From positions 1 through 7,784 of the forward strand of contig JAGUYV010000301.1 of assembly GCA_020061125.1 (NCBI GenBank): 7,784 bases of DNA, given 5' to 3'. Shown in pieces: positions 610 to 6,676 of this stretch. The notes under the pieces are model-generated. The model made no database searches and had not been told where the DNA came from. It saw only the letters and a program-made list of their open reading frames with translations. Each line of letters begins with the position of its first letter. Positions within the stretch are counted from its first letter, which is position 1. The position numbers and the translations under genes are program-made. This DNA comes from a bacterium. Its GTDB lineage: Bacteria > UBP15 > UBA6099 > DSWB01.

Positions 610-1977
610 CTATTTCTCGTGGATTTTCTTGTTCCAGGCGCCCAACTCGCGCACCATGTCTTCCTTGATACGCGTGAGTTCCTCGTCGCTGAAGTCCGTG
701 AAATTTACGCGCACTTTCTCGCCCTGTTCCCCGAGATTGAGGAGGTGTTCTTCCTCGTCCGGGATTTTGCCCATTTGCATGGCTATGTCGTAGAGCGTTG
801 TCTTGGGGTAGGGGGTCGCGAAGAATATCACCTCGGGCGCGAGGTTGAGTTCCTTGCAGAATTCCACGGTTTCGCGCACGGTTTCATGGGTTTCACCGGG
901 CAGGCCCGCGATGAACGAGCAGTCGGCCCAGCCCAGATGCTTCTGGGTCAGGCGGATGGCGGTTTTGGCCTGTTCCACGGTGACTTTCTTTTTGATCCGG
1001 TCCAGAATGGTCTGGCTTCCCGACTCGATGCCGTAGCCGATGAACACGCACCCGGCTTCTTTCATGCGCACGATCATCTCTTCGGTCATGATGTTCACGC
1101 GGCCCGCGCAACCCCAGGTCACGCCCATGTTCTCCCGGGTCATGATCTCGCAGAAACGGCGCACATTCACTTTATTAATGATGAAGCAGTCGTCAATGAA
1201 ATGGATGTATTGCACATTATAGCGGCTTTTGAGTTCCGCGATTTCCGCCACGATGTTCTCCGCGCTGCGGAATCTGTATTTCACGCCCATGAAGTCGTGG
1301 TAGCAGAAGGTGCAGTCGTAGGGGCAGCCGCGTGACGAAAGCACATTCATGCTGCGGCGGTGTTCGGTGTCCGGGGCGATGGAGCCGTCGTCCCACTTGT
1401 TGAGGTTCACGGCCCCGATGGGATTTTCGCAGTAAATGTCCATGGGAAACAGATCCCAGCGCGGAAATGGCAGGGAGTCGAGGTCCATGATCGGTGAGCG
1501 CGGGGCCGTGGCGTGCGGCTTGCCCGAGGCGTCGCGGTACCAGATGCCGGGCACTGTTTCGAGGTCCCGGCCATGCGCCAGTGCGTCGAGCAGTTCGCTG
1601 GTGGTGTTTTCGCCCTCGCCGATGCACAGGATGTCCACGGCGGTTTTGTCCATCATCACATGCGGCACGCTTGTGGCGCAACTGCCGCCCGCGATGATGG
1701 TTTTGTCCGGGTGAAGCCTGCGCACGGTCTGGATCAGATCCTTGATGATCCTGTATATTGTTACCAGGCCGCCGATGCCGAATACATCCGCATCGGACGA
1801 GGCGATGGCGCGCTCGAGTTCTTCGCGCGAAGGGCGCAGCGCGTTGATGTCGTACACTTCGATATCCCAGTCCGGATTGCGTTCCCCGATCACGGCGGCA
1901 AGATACCCCAGGCCGGAGGGATACACATTCGGCAGAGACCATTCACGAATAGGCGGGTTCAGAAGTAATAGTTTCAT
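610..1977 (-). CDS. B12-binding-domain radical SAM protein
   Basis: A 455-residue protein with the two-domain layout of B12-binding radical SAM enzymes. Residues 1-150 form a Rossmann-like cobalamin-binding region (MKLLLLNPP start, VYPSGLGYLAAV at 18-29, DVFGIGG at 64-70, IIAGGSCAT at 94-102, CIGEGE at 118-123). No DxHxxG base-off motif is seen, which is common in this class. The radical SAM core carries RGCPYDCTFC, with cluster cysteines 218, 222 and 225, then GIESGSQ (316-322) and FIAGLPGET (355-363). Such enzymes carry out methylation or other radical chemistry on lipids, sugars and natural products. The open frame extends upstream to 2061, but homology begins at ATG 1977. No Shine-Dalgarno sequence precedes 1977, so the start is supported by alignment only. 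It is the first gene of the leftward operon with the GNAT and NeuB genes. The substrate is unknown. Confidence 0.9.
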   Translation of the reverse strand: MKLLLLNPPIREWSLPNVYPSGLGYLAAVIGERNPDWDIEVYDINALRPSREELERAIASSDADVFGIGGLVTIYRIIKDLIQTVRRLHPDKTIIAGGSCATSVPHVMMDKTAVDILCIGEGENTTSELLDALAHGRDLETVPGIWYRDASGKPHATAPRSPIMDLDSLPFPRWDLFPMDIYCENPIGAVNLNKWDDGSIAPDTEHRRSMNVLSSRGCPYDCTFCYHDFMGVKYRFRSAENIVAEIAELKSRYNVQYIHFIDDCFIINKVNVRRFCEIMTRENMGVTWGCAGRVNIMTEEMIVRMKEAGCVFIGYGIESGSQTILDRIKKKVTVEQAKTAIRLTQKHLGWADCSFIAGLPGETHETVRETVEFCKELNLAPEVIFFATPYPKTTLYDIAMQMGKIPDEEEHLLNLGEQGEKVRVNFTDFSDEELTRIKEDMVRELGAWNKKIHEK

Positions 1978-2306: not shown

Positions 2307-3086
2307 ATGTCACAAGCAATGGCAAGCACAGAAATCATGAATCACGAGAGCGACAACAAGCCAGTCCTCGCCAGTGTACAGGCATGGGAACTGCCCGTGC
2401 GTTCGCGCGCCATGGACATTGTGTTTCATGCGTTTCAAATCCTGTTGAGCGCGGCCGGGCTGATCGTGTTTTCGCCGCTGTTTCTCGTGGTTGCGATCCT
2501 GGTGAAAATCAATTCTCCCGGCCCGGTGTTCTACAGGGGCGCACGAATCGGCAAAGGCAACACGCTGTACAAGCTCGTCAAGTTTCGGACCCTGCCCGTT
2601 CAGTACGAGCAGTCCGTGGGTGACCGCGTGCTCACGCAGAAAGAGCGCATCAACGGACTTTTCGCGGCCATCGTAGTGCGCAGCAAGCTCGACGAACTGC
2701 CGCAACTCATAAATGTTATCAAAGGCGACATGAATTTCGTGGGACCGCGCCCCGTGCGTCCCATCATTTATTCCAAATATTCAAAAACCATACCGGGATA
2801 CAACCGCAAATTCGCGGTCAAGCCCGGCATCACCGGCCTGGCCCAGATCATCGGCGGTTATTACATGGACCCCCGAAAAAAGCATAAATATGATATGCTT
2901 TACATGGAGCGCAGATGTCTGCTGCTCGATATGAAACTCATTGCGCTCACTTTCCTGACTCTGGTCTTGAGCCGCCGGATTATGAAGCTTAAAATTACGG
3001 AACGGTTCCTGGGATTCGAACTTGGAGTGGATGAAGACGAACTCGAACCCACGGCCGATGACTACAAGAATGTAACGGGGACCTGA
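2307..3086 (+). CDS. Polyprenol-phosphate sugar-phosphate transferase (bacterial sugar transferase family)
   Basis: A 259-residue monotopic phosphoglycosyl transferase, consisting essentially of the catalytic domain as in PglC/WcaJ C-termini. It moves a sugar-1-phosphate from a nucleotide sugar to undecaprenyl phosphate at the inner membrane, the first step of glycan assembly. Visible hallmarks are RAMDIVF (34-40), a re-entrant membrane helix (about 41-66) with the SP pair at 56-57, SPGPVFYRGARIG (70-82), KFRT (92-95), the catalytic Asp-Glu pair in KLDELPQL (129-130), GDMNFVGPRP (140-149) and KPGITGLAQ (172-180). I chose ATG 2307 because GGGAG lies eight bases upstream; an in-frame ATG at 2247 lacks a good site and overlaps the small upstream ORF. 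The acidic C-terminal tail (about 240-255) is not part of the conserved domain. The next gene begins immediately at the stop codon. Confidence 0.9.
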   Translation: MSQAMASTEIMNHESDNKPVLASVQAWELPVRSRAMDIVFHAFQILLSAAGLIVFSPLFLVVAILVKINSPGPVFYRGARIGKGNTLYKLVKFRTLPVQYEQSVGDRVLTQKERINGLFAAIVVRSKLDELPQLINVIKGDMNFVGPRPVRPIIYSKYSKTIPGYNRKFAVKPGITGLAQIIGGYYMDPRKKHKYDMLYMERRCLLLDMKLIALTFLTLVLSRRIMKLKITERFLGFELGVDEDELEPTADDYKNVTGT

Positions 3087-3836
3087 TTGAACCCGGCAAA
3101 ACCGACCATGCAAAGAATCGTCATCTCCGTATTCGTCTTGTTGCTCGCCGCCTTGCCCGCAGCGCGTTGCGCTATGGCGCAGGACAATCCGCCCCAGGCC
3201 TATCTGATCCAGCCCGAGGATGTCATCGAGATAACGGTATGGCCGGACGACAAAATGTCTCTCAAGACAACGGTGCGGCCCGATGGAACCATTTCATACC
3301 CGTTTCTGGGACAGCTCAAGGTTGAAGGCATGACCGTGACCGATCTGACCATGCGCATCGAGGAATCGCTGCTCGGATATTTGAATAACCCCAAGGTCGC
3401 GGTCAATGTGACTAATTTCCGCCGCATGCGCGCATTCGTGCTCGGCGCTGTCTTGAATCCCGGCGTTTACGACATTCGCAAGGGCGACACCATCATGGAC
3501 CTGATCGCGGAGGCCAACGGTTTCTCGGACAAAGCCAAGAAAAGCGAGGTCGCGCTCATCCGTCCGCCCAGGGAACGCCCCCTGCAAATGCAGGAATCTG
3601 CTTCCGCTCCCGACGCCTCGGCCGCTCCGGGCGGCGACGCCATGAAATACATCAGTGTCATCAATGTGGCCGAAGTGCTCGGCAAAGGCGAGTTCCCCGT
3701 TCAGGATCAGTATCTCCTGCAGGACGGCGACATCGTTTTCGTGCCAACCGGAAAAAAAGTTGACTGGGAGAAAATTTACAAGGTTGTCACTACGGCGTAT
3801 TTCGCATTCAGCGTTGACAATTTAATCGGTGATTGA
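3087..3836 (+). CDS. Polysaccharide export protein, Wza/OPX type (Poly_export plus SLBB)
   Basis: A 249-residue exported protein, short compared with Wza (about 380), like the small OPX proteins of exopolysaccharide loci. It carries polysaccharide across the periplasm and outer membrane. Numbering from the internal ATG at 3108, residues 1-25 are a signal peptide with likely cleavage after AMA; a cysteine is present but no proper lipobox. The Poly_export domain follows (YLIQPEDVIEITVWPD at 32-47, VRPDGTISYPFLG at 56-68), then one SLBB domain (FVLGAVLNPGVYDI at 110-123, ending LLQDGDIVFVP at 203-213) and a C-terminal helix. A Ser/Ala/Pro-rich linker interrupts the SLBB region near 163-178. The chosen TTG start at 3087 directly follows the sugar transferase TGA and has GGGG six bases upstream, suggesting translational coupling. 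ATG 3108 is possible but has no ribosome binding site. Confidence 0.9.
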   Translation: MNPAKPTMQRIVISVFVLLLAALPAARCAMAQDNPPQAYLIQPEDVIEITVWPDDKMSLKTTVRPDGTISYPFLGQLKVEGMTVTDLTMRIEESLLGYLNNPKVAVNVTNFRRMRAFVLGAVLNPGVYDIRKGDTIMDLIAEANGFSDKAKKSEVALIRPPRERPLQMQESASAPDASAAPGGDAMKYISVINVAEVLGKGEFPVQDQYLLQDGDIVFVPTGKKVDWEKIYKVVTTAYFAFSVDNLIGD

Positions 3837-3965: not shown

Positions 3966-4742
3966 ATGATTATCGGCATTGTGGGCGTTCCGCCCTGGGA
4001 CATGATGCAGGACTATCTGCGCGCCGGGCATTCCATCATTGACCTCGACGAACCCGTGCCGGATCTGCCCGTGCAGGATGTATTCCTGCCCAACGCTTAT
4101 TGCTCGATCCTCAAGCGCGTGGTGAGCAACATCTTCGGCCTGCGCGAGCGCGGCGGGCTGGATCTGGTTCTGGCCACGGTGGGAGAATGCAAGTGCGACG
4201 GCATGCGCAACATCGCGCGATGGCTTGAAAATACCACGGATATTCCAGTAAAGCAGGTGCGTAACGGCAATATGCTGGGCGCCGGGCATCCCATCTGCGA
4301 CAGTGGCCTGCCCCTGCCGGAAAAGTTCGAGCGCATCGTGAGCAGCGTATACGAGCCTGCGCCTGCATCCCTGGGGCCGCGCCTGGCGCCAGTCGAACCG
4401 GTGTGCGGATTCTGGGGCGTGCCGCCATACGATTTCGACATCGCAAGTTTGTTCCCGGATCGCACGCGCGTCTTCGGCTGGACCCGATGCATGGAGAACC
4501 GGACCCCCGCGGATCTGGACCTCGAGTGTTTCGTGCAACCGGGGCTGCCGACCGTGTTCTTCACGCAGTCGTTCTGCCAGAAAGCCGCGCTTGCGTTCAA
4601 TCTGGCCAAGGCGCACAACGGGCTGTTCGTGGAGGTGGACAAACGGCTCACCCGCTCCACGGCCGCAAAAATCCAGGCGTTTATCGAATTCAATGTGCAG
4701 CAGGAAAAGACCGAATGCCGCAGGACGCGTCCGCGCGCATGA
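3966..4742 (+). CDS. Compact HgdB-like 2-hydroxyacyl-CoA dehydratase D-component family protein
   Basis: A 258-residue protein that I match by motif to the HgdB/HadC/BcrC-type subunit, which binds a [4Fe-4S] cluster and receives electrons from an ATP-driven activator. Three cysteines fall where the family's cluster ligands lie: Cys46 in LPNAYC, Cys77 in GECKCDGM (the CDG motif), and Cys204 in FFTQSFC, followed by the typical C-terminal GLFVEVDKR. Spacing of the first two (31) is close to that in HadC (33), but the gap to the third (127) is about 100 residues shorter, so the middle of the usual 380-430-residue protein is missing. GVPPWD (7-12) and GVPPYD (151-156) mark the starts of two similar half-domains. 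Six other cysteines are present. The start is ATG 3966 with GGAG upstream; the frame is open further upstream but there overlaps the promoter. The activator-like ATPase follows 22 nt downstream. The reaction is unknown. Confidence 0.72.
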   Translation: MIIGIVGVPPWDMMQDYLRAGHSIIDLDEPVPDLPVQDVFLPNAYCSILKRVVSNIFGLRERGGLDLVLATVGECKCDGMRNIARWLENTTDIPVKQVRNGNMLGAGHPICDSGLPLPEKFERIVSSVYEPAPASLGPRLAPVEPVCGFWGVPPYDFDIASLFPDRTRVFGWTRCMENRTPADLDLECFVQPGLPTVFFTQSFCQKAALAFNLAKAHNGLFVEVDKRLTRSTAAKIQAFIEFNVQQEKTECRRTRPRA

Positions 4743-4764
4743 CCGGGCAGCGCATTCTCTGACT

Positions 4765-5448
4765 ATGCCATCGCAATCAAAACACACAATTCTTCTGGAC
4801 TGCGGCACAAGCTACGCCAAGGTGCATTACTGCGGCACGGGCCGGAGGCGCATCATCCCGGCGCGCGACATCATGCGCCATCCAGACCGCTATCGCGTGG
4901 CTGCGGCCACCGGACACAACGCCGGGGTCAGAACGCAGACGCGCGTGAACGAGCTTGTCGCCCTGGCGCATGGCGGCCTGGCGTTGATTCCGGACAAAAA
5001 CTTTACGCTTCTGGACTGCGGCGCGCGCGATGTGAAATTCGTGAAGGTCCGCAACCGGAAGGTGCGCGGCATGGATTGGAACACCGAGTGCGGAGCGTTC
5101 ACCGGGCAAGTCATCGAGCTGCTGGCGCGATACTTTGATATGGACACTTCCTCACCTTCCGCATCAACGGGCCGCCTGCCCGTGGTATGCGGCGTGCTCG
5201 GCATGACCGCCATGTTCGACCGCATCGCACAGGGCGCGCCCCACGAAGTCGCGTTCAGCGAATTCCTGCGAGGCATCGCATTCAACTGCCAGACTCTGGT
5301 GGGCCGCCCCGATGTGCTTTACCTCTCCGGCGGCCTGTGCAAGAACCATACCTTCGTCAACAGCTTTTCCTGCGAAGTGCGGACCCTGGGCCGCTATGTG
5401 CTCCTGGACGGACTGCTCCGCGCCACGGACGCTTCTCAAATCAAATAA
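4765..5448 (+). CDS. HgdC/BadF-type ASKHA ATPase (dehydratase activator-like)
   Basis: A 227-residue protein, slightly shorter than HgdC (about 260). Activators of this family form a homodimer bridged by one [4Fe-4S] cluster and use ATP hydrolysis to drive an electron into a dehydratase or double-cubane protein. Visible parts are phosphate-1 loop LLDCGTSYAK (10-19), NELVALAHGG (62-71, matching the family's EIT-A-G segment), phosphate-2 loop LLDCGARDVK (82-91), and the cluster loop ECGAFTGQ (108-115, family CAAGTG) with Cys109. Cys142 (VVCGVLGMTAMF) sits where HgdC has its second ligand in CTVFAESEV, and GGLCKN (189-194) is the adenosine motif. Both cluster cysteines are thus kept although several flanking residues differ. 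The start is ATG 4765, 22 nt after the preceding stop, with no clear ribosome binding site; coupling with the upstream gene is likely. That gene is its probable electron acceptor. Confidence 0.82.
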   Translation: MPSQSKHTILLDCGTSYAKVHYCGTGRRRIIPARDIMRHPDRYRVAAATGHNAGVRTQTRVNELVALAHGGLALIPDKNFTLLDCGARDVKFVKVRNRKVRGMDWNTECGAFTGQVIELLARYFDMDTSSPSASTGRLPVVCGVLGMTAMFDRIAQGAPHEVAFSEFLRGIAFNCQTLVGRPDVLYLSGGLCKNHTFVNSFSCEVRTLGRYVLLDGLLRATDASQIK

Positions 5449-5517
5449 TCATCTGACCATAACCATCGCCCCATTGCTTCCCGACGGACATCATGGAGTT
5501 CTCTTTGTCCACACGGG

Positions 5518-5566
5518 TTGCGCGTTTGCCTTGCATCAGGGTATTATCGCGGCAACGGCTTATAAT
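5518..5566 (+). promoter_or_regulatory. Possible promoter(s) upstream of the UroD-family gene
   Basis: TTGCGC (5518-5523) and TATTAT (5542-5547) are separated by 18 bases. A second, perfect TATAAT lies at 5561-5566 without a good -35 box. The two -10-like boxes belong to a direct repeat. This could let the UroD-family gene be expressed apart from the two genes before it. Confidence 0.35.
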
Positions 5567-5573
5567 CGCGGCA
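5542..5573 (+). repeat. Short direct repeat overlapping the -10 boxes
   Basis: TATTATCGCGGCA (5542-5554) is repeated as TATAATCGCGGCA (5561-5573), 12 of 13 bases identical, with starts 19 bp apart. Location in a candidate promoter fits a tandem regulator-binding site, but it is short. Confidence 0.4.
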
Positions 5574-5614
5574 GGGGCAAGCAAGGAGTCCAATCGGGAA
5601 ACGGCGGTGTGTTA

Positions 5615-6676
5615 ATGGTTGATCCCACAATGAACGCTATGCGCATGATGCAAATTGCCAATGGCATGAAACCGGATCAGGTTCCGGTGTTCCTGCCGAT
5701 CGAGAGCGGATTCATGGCGGAGTTCGGAGGCGCGTCGCAGAAGCAGTATCACCACGATCCGGGCATAATGCTGGAGTGCCAGGCGAAGGTCAGCGCACGG
5801 TTCGGCGGCCTGACTCCTCTGTACACGGATTTCGGCGTGGTGACCGAGGCTGCTGCGTTCTGTGACATATTCTGGCCAGAGGACGACTCCCCCTGGGCGC
5901 ACCCGGCCATGGAGACCGCAGCGGATGTTGCGCGTCTCAAGGTTCCGGATGTGGAAAGGGACGGCCTGTTCCCGCAAATCATCGAGTATTTCGAGACCAT
6001 GAACAATCTGGCGCTCAAGCGGGGCGTGCGGTCCCTGGTTCCGAATCCGCGCGGCCCCGTGGGATTCGGCAGCCTGCGCGGCCCCGTGGTCCTGGCGGCC
6101 ATGATTCGCGGCATCAACGAATTCCTCATGGATTTGATCCTCGCTCCAAAAGAAATGCACGCGCTCATGGAAATCGCCACGCAGACCCTGCTGGCGTATC
6201 TGGATTTGCAAAAAAACCATCTGGGCGGGTTGAGCGCCATTTTCATGTGCGACGATGTATGCGGACTTTTGTCCCCGCACCTGTTTGAAGAATTTTTCAT
6301 TCCCTACGCAAAGAGGATCTTCGATGCGCACAAGGATGTCATCACGATTTTCCACTGTGATTCGGACATGGCCAAAACCGTGCTCATGGCGCCGCTTACG
6401 GGAGCAAAGGCGTTCCACATGGGATACATGCACGACCTGGCGCACCTCAAAGCGGAGATCGGGGGCAGCATGTGTTTGCTGGGAAATGTGCCGCCTGTGC
6501 ATGTGATGCTGCGGCGGCCCAAAGCAGAAGTTGTAGAAGCGGCCCGGGTGTGCATTGCAAAGGCCGCGCCCGGGGGCGGATTTGGCCTGTCCTGCGGCGG
6601 CGTGATTGACCGCGGCACCCCGCCGGAAAACATTGACGCGCTCATCGAAGCCACGGAGTTGTTCGGAAAATATTGA
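5615..6676 (+). CDS. UroD/MtaA/CmuA-family protein (uroporphyrinogen decarboxylase-like fold)
   Basis: A 353-residue TIM-barrel protein of the uroporphyrinogen decarboxylase superfamily. It contains NGMKPDQVPVF near the start (16-26, the family's PDRVPV region), GPVGFGSLRG (147-156), FEEFFIPYAKRI (224-235), a metal-site region IFHCDSD (245-251), and a C-terminal GLSCGGVIDRGTPPENIDAL (324-343). That last segment resembles the MtaA/CmuA end in which a zinc ligand cysteine precedes TPxEN, so a cobalamin- or zinc-dependent methyl transfer role is more likely than heme synthesis. However, the usual His-x-Cys pair reads His-Cys-Asp here (247-249), with Cys327 as the further ligand candidate. No corrinoid protein is adjacent. 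The frame stays open far upstream, but conserved sequence begins near ATG 5615; a GTG at 5609 with GGGAA upstream is an alternative start. It may work with the two preceding genes. Confidence 0.85.
   Translation: MVDPTMNAMRMMQIANGMKPDQVPVFLPIESGFMAEFGGASQKQYHHDPGIMLECQAKVSARFGGLTPLYTDFGVVTEAAAFCDIFWPEDDSPWAHPAMETAADVARLKVPDVERDGLFPQIIEYFETMNNLALKRGVRSLVPNPRGPVGFGSLRGPVVLAAMIRGINEFLMDLILAPKEMHALMEIATQTLLAYLDLQKNHLGGLSAIFMCDDVCGLLSPHLFEEFFIPYAKRIFDAHKDVITIFHCDSDMAKTVLMAPLTGAKAFHMGYMHDLAHLKAEIGGSMCLLGNVPPVHVMLRRPKAEVVEAARVCIAKAAPGGGFGLSCGGVIDRGTPPENIDALIEATELFGKY

What the first reader, a model, noticed from the sequence alone, without database searches (positions are those of the whole stretch)
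3966..6676. Compact ATP-driven iron-sulfur pair next to a UroD/MtaA-family enzyme
The first two genes keep the cluster cysteines of an HgdB-type acceptor (46, 77, 204) and of its HgdC-type activator (109, 142), but both are smaller than normal. There is no HgdA-type second subunit, no CoA transferase and no corrinoid protein in the window. Known relatives use ATP-driven electron injection for dehydration, arene reduction or small-molecule reduction (the double-cubane proteins). A UroD/MtaA-type partner suggests a methyl-transfer or decarboxylation reaction needing very low-potential electrons, possibly reductive reactivation of a corrinoid encoded elsewhere. That link is inference.
Basis: partly seen in the sequence, partly recalled or inferred. 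Interest (0 to 1): 0.7.

Follow-up and report, generated by a model that had tools for sequence, protein, structure and literature searches.

The report
Compact iron-sulfur reductase pair, probably queuosine
Two neighbouring genes encode a shrunken ATP-powered iron-sulfur enzyme pair that, judging from which genomes carry it and from its nearest relatives, probably makes a building block (preQ1) of the tRNA modification queuosine in anaerobic bacteria that lack the normal enzyme for that step, QueF.

Summary
The first two genes are real and form a conserved pair: a 258-aa HgdB-like protein with exactly three invariant cysteines (46, 77, 204), and a 227-aa HgdC-like ATPase (109, 142 invariant). 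The pair recurs in 13 of the genomes examined, in about five unrelated lineages.

The evidence leads to queuosine instead. All 13 pair genomes have QueH and none has QueF (preQ0 to preQ1); ten have QueC. Sister genomes without the pair have either a queD-queC-queE-queF operon, or a queD-queC-DUF366-queE operon ending in a full-length HgdB-like gene. Ilyobacter polytropus has an HgdB-HgdC-queD-queE-folE-queC operon with no queF. By profile comparison those queuosine-operon HgdB proteins are the closest relatives found of the compact protein. In one family the compact pair overlaps a queuosine-precursor transporter gene.

I propose an ATP-dependent Fe-S preQ0 reductase that replaces QueF. Anatomy is well supported; the pathway link is strong inference; the reaction is untested.

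The parts
3966..4742 (+). hgdB-like gene, 258 aa (P0001): compact double-Rossmann iron-sulfur acceptor with Cys46, Cys77, Cys204; predicted catalytic subunit (proposed preQ0 reductase)
   Evidence: invariant Cys; fold matches to HadBC/BzdNO/MbdON/DCCP; closest to queuosine-operon HgdB
4101..4103 (+). Cys46 codon, predicted [4Fe-4S] ligand 1
   Evidence: invariant
4194..4196 (+). Cys77 codon, predicted [4Fe-4S] ligand 2
   Evidence: invariant
4575..4577 (+). Cys204 codon, predicted [4Fe-4S] ligand 3 (Q-S/A-F-C motif shared with queuosine-operon HgdB proteins)
   Evidence: invariant
4765..5448 (+). hgdC-like gene, 227 aa (P0002): ASKHA ATPase activator with Cys109 and Cys142 for a subunit-bridging [4Fe-4S] cluster
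   Evidence: TIGR00241 at E 9.9e-9, below its cut-off; HadI/HgdC/DCCP-R
5615..6676 (+). URO-D/MtaA-superfamily gene (353 aa); adjacent but not part of the conserved pair

Best explanation
P0001/P0002 is a compact HgdB/HgdC-type reductase of queuosine biosynthesis that does the job of QueF. P0002, an ASKHA ATPase dimer with a bridging [4Fe-4S] cluster, takes an electron from ferredoxin and, driven by ATP, injects it into the three-cysteine [4Fe-4S] cluster of P0001. P0001, probably a homodimer, binds preQ0 with its nitrile near the open iron site and reduces it in four one-electron steps to the aminomethyl group of preQ1, which TGT and QueA then use and QueH finishes. Shown here: gene pair, conserved cysteines, ATPase family, fold resemblance, co-occurrence with QueH/QueC, absence of QueF, and homologs in queuosine operons. 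Inferred: cluster assembly, homodimer, electron donor, and preQ0 as the substrate.
For: (1) QueH is present in 13/13 pair genomes and in 2/8 sister genomes without the pair. (2) QueF (PF14489) is over its cut-off in 0/13 pair genomes, while the two pair-less QueH genomes of the same phylum as G214 both have it, in a queD-queC-queE-queF operon. The weak hit in the window's own genome is FolE. (3) Clear QueC in 10/13 pair genomes including the window's own, with QueE next to it in G000, G005, G006 and G277. TGT and QueA lie by QueH in G214, and QueA by QueH in Aquicultor. So preQ0 is made or salvaged and preQ1 is needed, but QueF is missing. (4) Five sister genomes of G277 carry queD-queC-DUF366-queE followed by a full-length HGD-D-family gene; the three tested for QueF lack it. 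G277 itself has that operon without the HGD-D gene, but carries the compact pair elsewhere. (5) Ilyobacter polytropus pILYOP01: HgdB-HgdC-queD-queE-folE-queC with no queF. (6) The compact P0001 profile matches these queuosine-operon HgdB proteins over its full length (hhalign global Prob 97, E 7e-11; Ilyobacter alone 97), against 13 or less for canonical HgdB and YjiM and about 1 or less for 20 column shuffles and the reversed profile. The three cysteines align. (7) In G214, G344 and G388 the hgdB-like gene overlaps the end of a queuosine precursor transporter gene; E. coli's member of that family, YhhQ, is implicated in preQ0 transport (PMC5372724).
Against: No biochemistry. In the window the pair is not beside any queuosine gene. 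Three pair genomes (G002, G003, G396) show no true QueC, so they must salvage preQ0, or the gene is unassembled. The genomes with the full-length queuosine-operon HgdB also lack QueH where tested (G140, G389, G391) and QueG was not tested, so an epoxyqueuosine-reduction role for that homolog is not excluded. Only about five independent lineages; co-occurrence could partly reflect anaerobic lifestyle. The P0001 model has modest confidence (pLDDT 66.6). No preQ1 riboswitch was found at the loci tested. Most genomes are incomplete.
Confidence: 0.66

Rival explanations
1. The pair is an ATP-driven iron-sulfur reductase in the queuosine pathway but for another step, for example epoxyqueuosine to queuosine, or as an electron donor to QueH.
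For: QueH co-occurs with the pair in 13/13 genomes. The reductive removal of an epoxide oxygen resembles HgdB-type chemistry (inference). The full-length queuosine-operon homologs live in genomes that lack QueH where tested.
Against: QueH already fills that step in every pair genome, and pair-less genomes G073 and G386 have QueH without the pair. The step without a known enzyme in pair genomes is QueF's.
Confidence: 0.12
2. A general compact ATP-dependent small-molecule reductase or low-potential electron-injection module unrelated to queuosine, like the DCCP proteins.
For: Fold and sequence relation to DCCP/DCCP-R. Genomic neighbours vary between lineages, and in G277 the pair lies beside DUF2229 activase, DUF116 and ferredoxin oxidoreductase genes.
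Against: Three conserved cysteines, not the six that bind a double cubane (PMC11971306). Consistent QueH presence and QueF absence. Nearest relatives sit in queuosine operons.
Confidence: 0.17
3. One reading: the pair drives a methyl-transfer or decarboxylation reaction of the UroD/MtaA-type neighbour, for example reductive reactivation of a corrinoid.
For: Same strand and adjacent in the window.
Against: No UroD relative next to the pair in the other pair genomes examined; no ortholog of P0003; some pair genomes have no match at all.
Confidence: 0.03
4. A 2-hydroxyacyl-CoA dehydratase with a single subunit.
For: Same superfamily.
Against: The central helical bundle, which in BzdNO helps build the CoA channel (PMC11971306), is missing; no second subunit or CoA transferase in the window; P0001 matches no Pfam or NCBIfam family.
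Confidence: 0.02

Closest known systems
2-hydroxyacyl-CoA dehydratase / activator (HadBC-HadI, HgdAB-HgdC)
   Same: Double-Rossmann acceptor fold with three cysteine ligands; ASKHA activator with two cysteines for a bridging cluster
   Different: 258 aa instead of about 375; no central helical domain; one acceptor gene, not two; no CoA genes; no curated family matches the acceptor
DCCP / DCCP-R (double-cubane cluster protein and its reductase; E. coli YjiM/YjiL type)
   Same: Single acceptor gene next to its activator; best Foldseek hit for the acceptor and among the best for the activator
   Different: Only three conserved cysteines, so a single [4Fe-4S] cluster rather than [8Fe-9S]; hhalign to YjiM is weak
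HGD-D-family protein in queuosine operons (Ilyobacter polytropus ILYOP_RS11680 with activator RS11675; G140/G389/G391/G392/G394)
   Same: Closest sequence relatives found; same three cysteines and Q-S/A-F-C motif; the Ilyobacter example is also an HgdB-HgdC pair
   Different: About 330 aa with the central helical segment; the unnamed-genome members are recognised by Pfam HGD-D; inside the queuosine operon rather than away from it. I found no paper in the library that links this family to queuosine
QueF (NADPH-dependent preQ0 reductase)
   Same: Proposed to catalyse the same step, preQ0 to preQ1
   Different: Unrelated fold (tunnelling-fold family) and chemistry, from general knowledge; QueF is absent wherever the pair was found

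Membership tests
HgdC / acyl-CoA dehydratase activase (BcrAD_BadFG, TIGR00241) | Sequence match above curated cut-off | tested here: not met
   PF01869 24.4 bits against 31.5; TIGR00241 35.1 against 125.4
HgdC / acyl-CoA dehydratase activase (BcrAD_BadFG, TIGR00241) | ASKHA fold, phosphate and adenosine motifs and two cluster cysteines | tested here: met
   Model pLDDT 85 best matches HadI, HgdC, DCCP-R; C109 and C142 invariant
HgdB / HGD-D (PF06050) | Sequence match to PF06050 | tested here: not met
   No Pfam match at E 0.1
HgdB / HGD-D (PF06050) | Double-Rossmann fold with three cluster cysteines | tested here: met
   The only full-length fold matches with VIA Z 8.5-9.5 are HadBC, BzdNO, MbdON and DCCP, on a model of modest confidence; three invariant Cys align
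HgdB / HGD-D (PF06050) | Central helical domain | tested here: not met
   Missing from the joint alignment
Double-cubane cluster protein (DCCP) | Six cysteines per acceptor subunit | tested here: not met
   Only three invariant cysteines
QueF functional equivalents | Present in Q-making genomes that lack QueF | tested here: met
   13/13 pair genomes with QueH, 0/13 with QueF over cut-off
QueF functional equivalents | Converts preQ0 to preQ1 | not testable with these tools
   Needs biochemistry or complementation
QueF protein family (PF14489) | Sequence match to PF14489 | tested here: not met
   P0001 and P0002 show no QueF match in Pfam

The most novel reading that the evidence does not exclude
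An unrecognised second way to make preQ1: HgdB/HgdC-type ATP-driven iron-sulfur enzymes, in a full-length form (Ilyobacter-type, inside the queuosine operon) and a compact form (this window), reduce a nitrile to an amine in place of NADPH-dependent QueF in strict anaerobes.
Probability: 0.6. Interest if true: 0.85.

Novelty: new variant of a known kind. Interest (0 to 1): 0.74.

Why it matters
QueF is, as far as I know, the only known biological nitrile reductase and the only known enzyme for preQ0 to preQ1. An ATP-driven iron-sulfur replacement would close a hole in queuosine synthesis in uncultured anaerobes and a cultured fusobacterium, extend the HgdB/benzoyl-CoA reductase superfamily from CoA esters to a nucleobase nitrile, and give the superfamily an unusually small acceptor. 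It is directly testable by complementing an E. coli queF mutant.

Tried and rejected
UroD partnership: rejected by synteny and lack of orthologs. QueG/QueH replacement: first guess after seeing the transporter overlap; rejected because QueH is present in all pair genomes. preQ1 riboswitch upstream of the pair or the queuosine operons: none found. Viral, phage and plasmid copies of the compact pair: none found. HMMER of the P0001 profile against PDB sequences: only chance hits. hhalign of P0001 against canonical HgdB from its own genome: no useful score. Trees: the HgdB tree joins compact and queuosine-operon forms at 94/88, but long branches make this weak; the activator tree does not place the Ilyobacter activator with the compact ones, so descent of the two pairs from one queuosine-specific ancestor is not shown.

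Full report
What is there. The window carries, on the + strand, a 258-aa gene at 3966-4742, a 227-aa gene at 4765-5448 (22 bp later) and a 353-aa URO-D family gene at 5615-6676 (166 bp later). The first protein matches no Pfam or NCBIfam family; the second matches the activase family only below the curated cut-offs. The window lies in an incomplete (79%) genome assembly of 513 contigs.

The pair is conserved, the trio is not. Relatives of the first protein were found in five further genomes of the same order, four genomes of one family of another phylum (f187), two more lineages (G252, G277) and Candidatus Aquicultor secundus. A relative of the second protein lies next to it, in the same order, wherever the stretch held covers both. 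In several genomes the two genes overlap by 4-10 bp, which suggests translational coupling. A diverse sample of about 380 genomes shows only 10 carriers, so the pair is rare and patchy. No other pair genome examined has a relative of the UroD gene beside the pair, and P0003 has no ortholog in them, with 30% identity at best.

What the proteins are. The second protein's profile finds HadI, HgdC and the DCCP reductase in the PDB (E 1.7e-13 to 1.5e-10), and its model (pLDDT 85) finds the same proteins first. C109 and C142 align with cysteines of those activators that, from general knowledge, bind the bridging cluster. The first protein's model is modest (pLDDT 66.6), but the only solved structures it matches over its full length are HadBC, BzdNO, MbdON and DCCP (Foldseek E 2.7e-5 to 1.7e-3; VIA Z 8.5-9.5, the rest at 7.6 or lower covering mostly one domain). 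C46, C77 and C204 are the only invariant cysteines and align with three cysteine columns of full-length relatives. The roughly 100-residue central helical part is absent; in BzdNO that region stabilises the protein and helps form the CoA channel (PMC11971306), so a CoA ester is an unlikely substrate (inference). Three cysteines rather than six argue for one [4Fe-4S] cluster, not a double cubane.

How queuosine came in. In family f187 the hgdB-like gene overlaps the end of a gene for a queuosine precursor transporter (TIGR00697, E 6e-56). I therefore tested queuosine enzymes in 21 genomes: 13 with the pair and 8 sisters without it. QueH was in 13/13 pair genomes and 2/8 others. QueF was over its cut-off in 0/13 pair genomes and only in G073 and G386, the same two pair-less genomes that have QueH. 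Their QueF sits in a queD-queC-queE-queF operon. The sub-threshold hit in the window's genome is FolE. Fisher tests give p = 0.0095 for pair against QueF among QueH genomes and p = 0.0005 for pair against QueH, but they ignore relatedness; the honest count is about five independent lineages. QueC is clear in 10/13 pair genomes, including the window's own, where QueE is directly next to it. TGT and QueA lie in the QueH neighbourhood of G214, and QueA follows QueH in Aquicultor. These genomes therefore appear to need preQ1 but have no known enzyme to reduce preQ0. Among 2,228 gut genomes classified in PMC6593275, the variants listed that contain QueC also contain QueF.

The relatives that close the argument. 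Five sister genomes of G277 have an operon queD-queC-DUF366-queE followed by a 327-336 aa HGD-D family gene (in G389 that gene is cut by the contig end). The three of them tested lack QueF. G277 itself keeps queD-queC-DUF366-queE without that gene, but carries the compact pair elsewhere. A search of plasmids with this full-length protein found a single match, on Ilyobacter polytropus pILYOP01 (43% identity over 99%). There the operon reads 2-hydroxyacyl-CoA dehydratase, acyl-CoA dehydratase activase, queD, queE, folE, queC, with no queF in the 21 kb seen. Profile comparison places the compact family nearest to these queuosine-operon proteins: global Prob 97.3 and E 7e-11 over 246 columns, against 13 or less for canonical HgdB from the same genome and E. 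coli YjiM, and 1.1 or less for shuffled and reversed controls. Hence three different solutions (queF, full-length hgdB with or without its activator beside it, or the compact pair) appear to fill the same slot.

Proposed mechanism. P0002 dimer, ATP and ferredoxin supply low-potential electrons one at a time to the [4Fe-4S] cluster of P0001. The nitrile of preQ0 binds near the open iron site (water-ligated in HAD and BzdO, PMC11971306) and is reduced by four electrons to preQ1. DCCP's reduction of acetylene, hydrazine and azide (PMC11971306) is a chemical precedent. Shown: sequences, conservation, fold resemblance, co-occurrence, operons. Inferred: clusters, dimer, electron source, substrate.

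Limits. The pathway assignment rests on comparative genomics in incomplete genomes. Three pair genomes lack a detectable QueC. The full-length queuosine-operon homologs occur in genomes without QueH where tested, and QueG was not tested, so an epoxyqueuosine role for that branch stays open. The activator tree does not group the Ilyobacter activator with the compact ones, and long branches limit both trees. No paper in the held library mentions 2-hydroxyglutaryl-CoA dehydratase or benzoyl-CoA reductase together with queuosine; most subscription papers are not in that library, so novelty is provisional.

Noticed in passing
L104-L108 (queD-queC-DUF366-queE operons); L092 4191-4748: DUF366 (PF04017) sits between queC and queE in G277 and its sister genomes, suggesting an unrecognised queuosine-related role for DUF366.
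   Followed up: partly
window 613-1974, - strand: B12-binding radical SAM protein (top NCBIfam similarity HpnJ/BchE, all below cut-off), divergent from the polysaccharide genes.
   Followed up: no
window 2307-3836: Sugar transferase (Bac_transf) and polysaccharide export (Poly_export/SLBB) genes directly upstream of the pair, likely an exopolysaccharide unit unrelated to it.
   Followed up: no
L034 1092-6304: In G277 a 1046-aa double activase/DUF2229 fusion, a 403-aa protein resembling COG3581-type HgdB relatives (no Pfam match) and a DUF116 gene run directly into the compact pair, with 2-oxoacid:ferredoxin oxidoreductase genes downstream.
   Followed up: no
window 5615-6676: The URO-D protein reads IFHCDSD where MtaA-type enzymes have the zinc motif HxC (from memory), so it may be a variant without the usual zinc site.
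   Followed up: no
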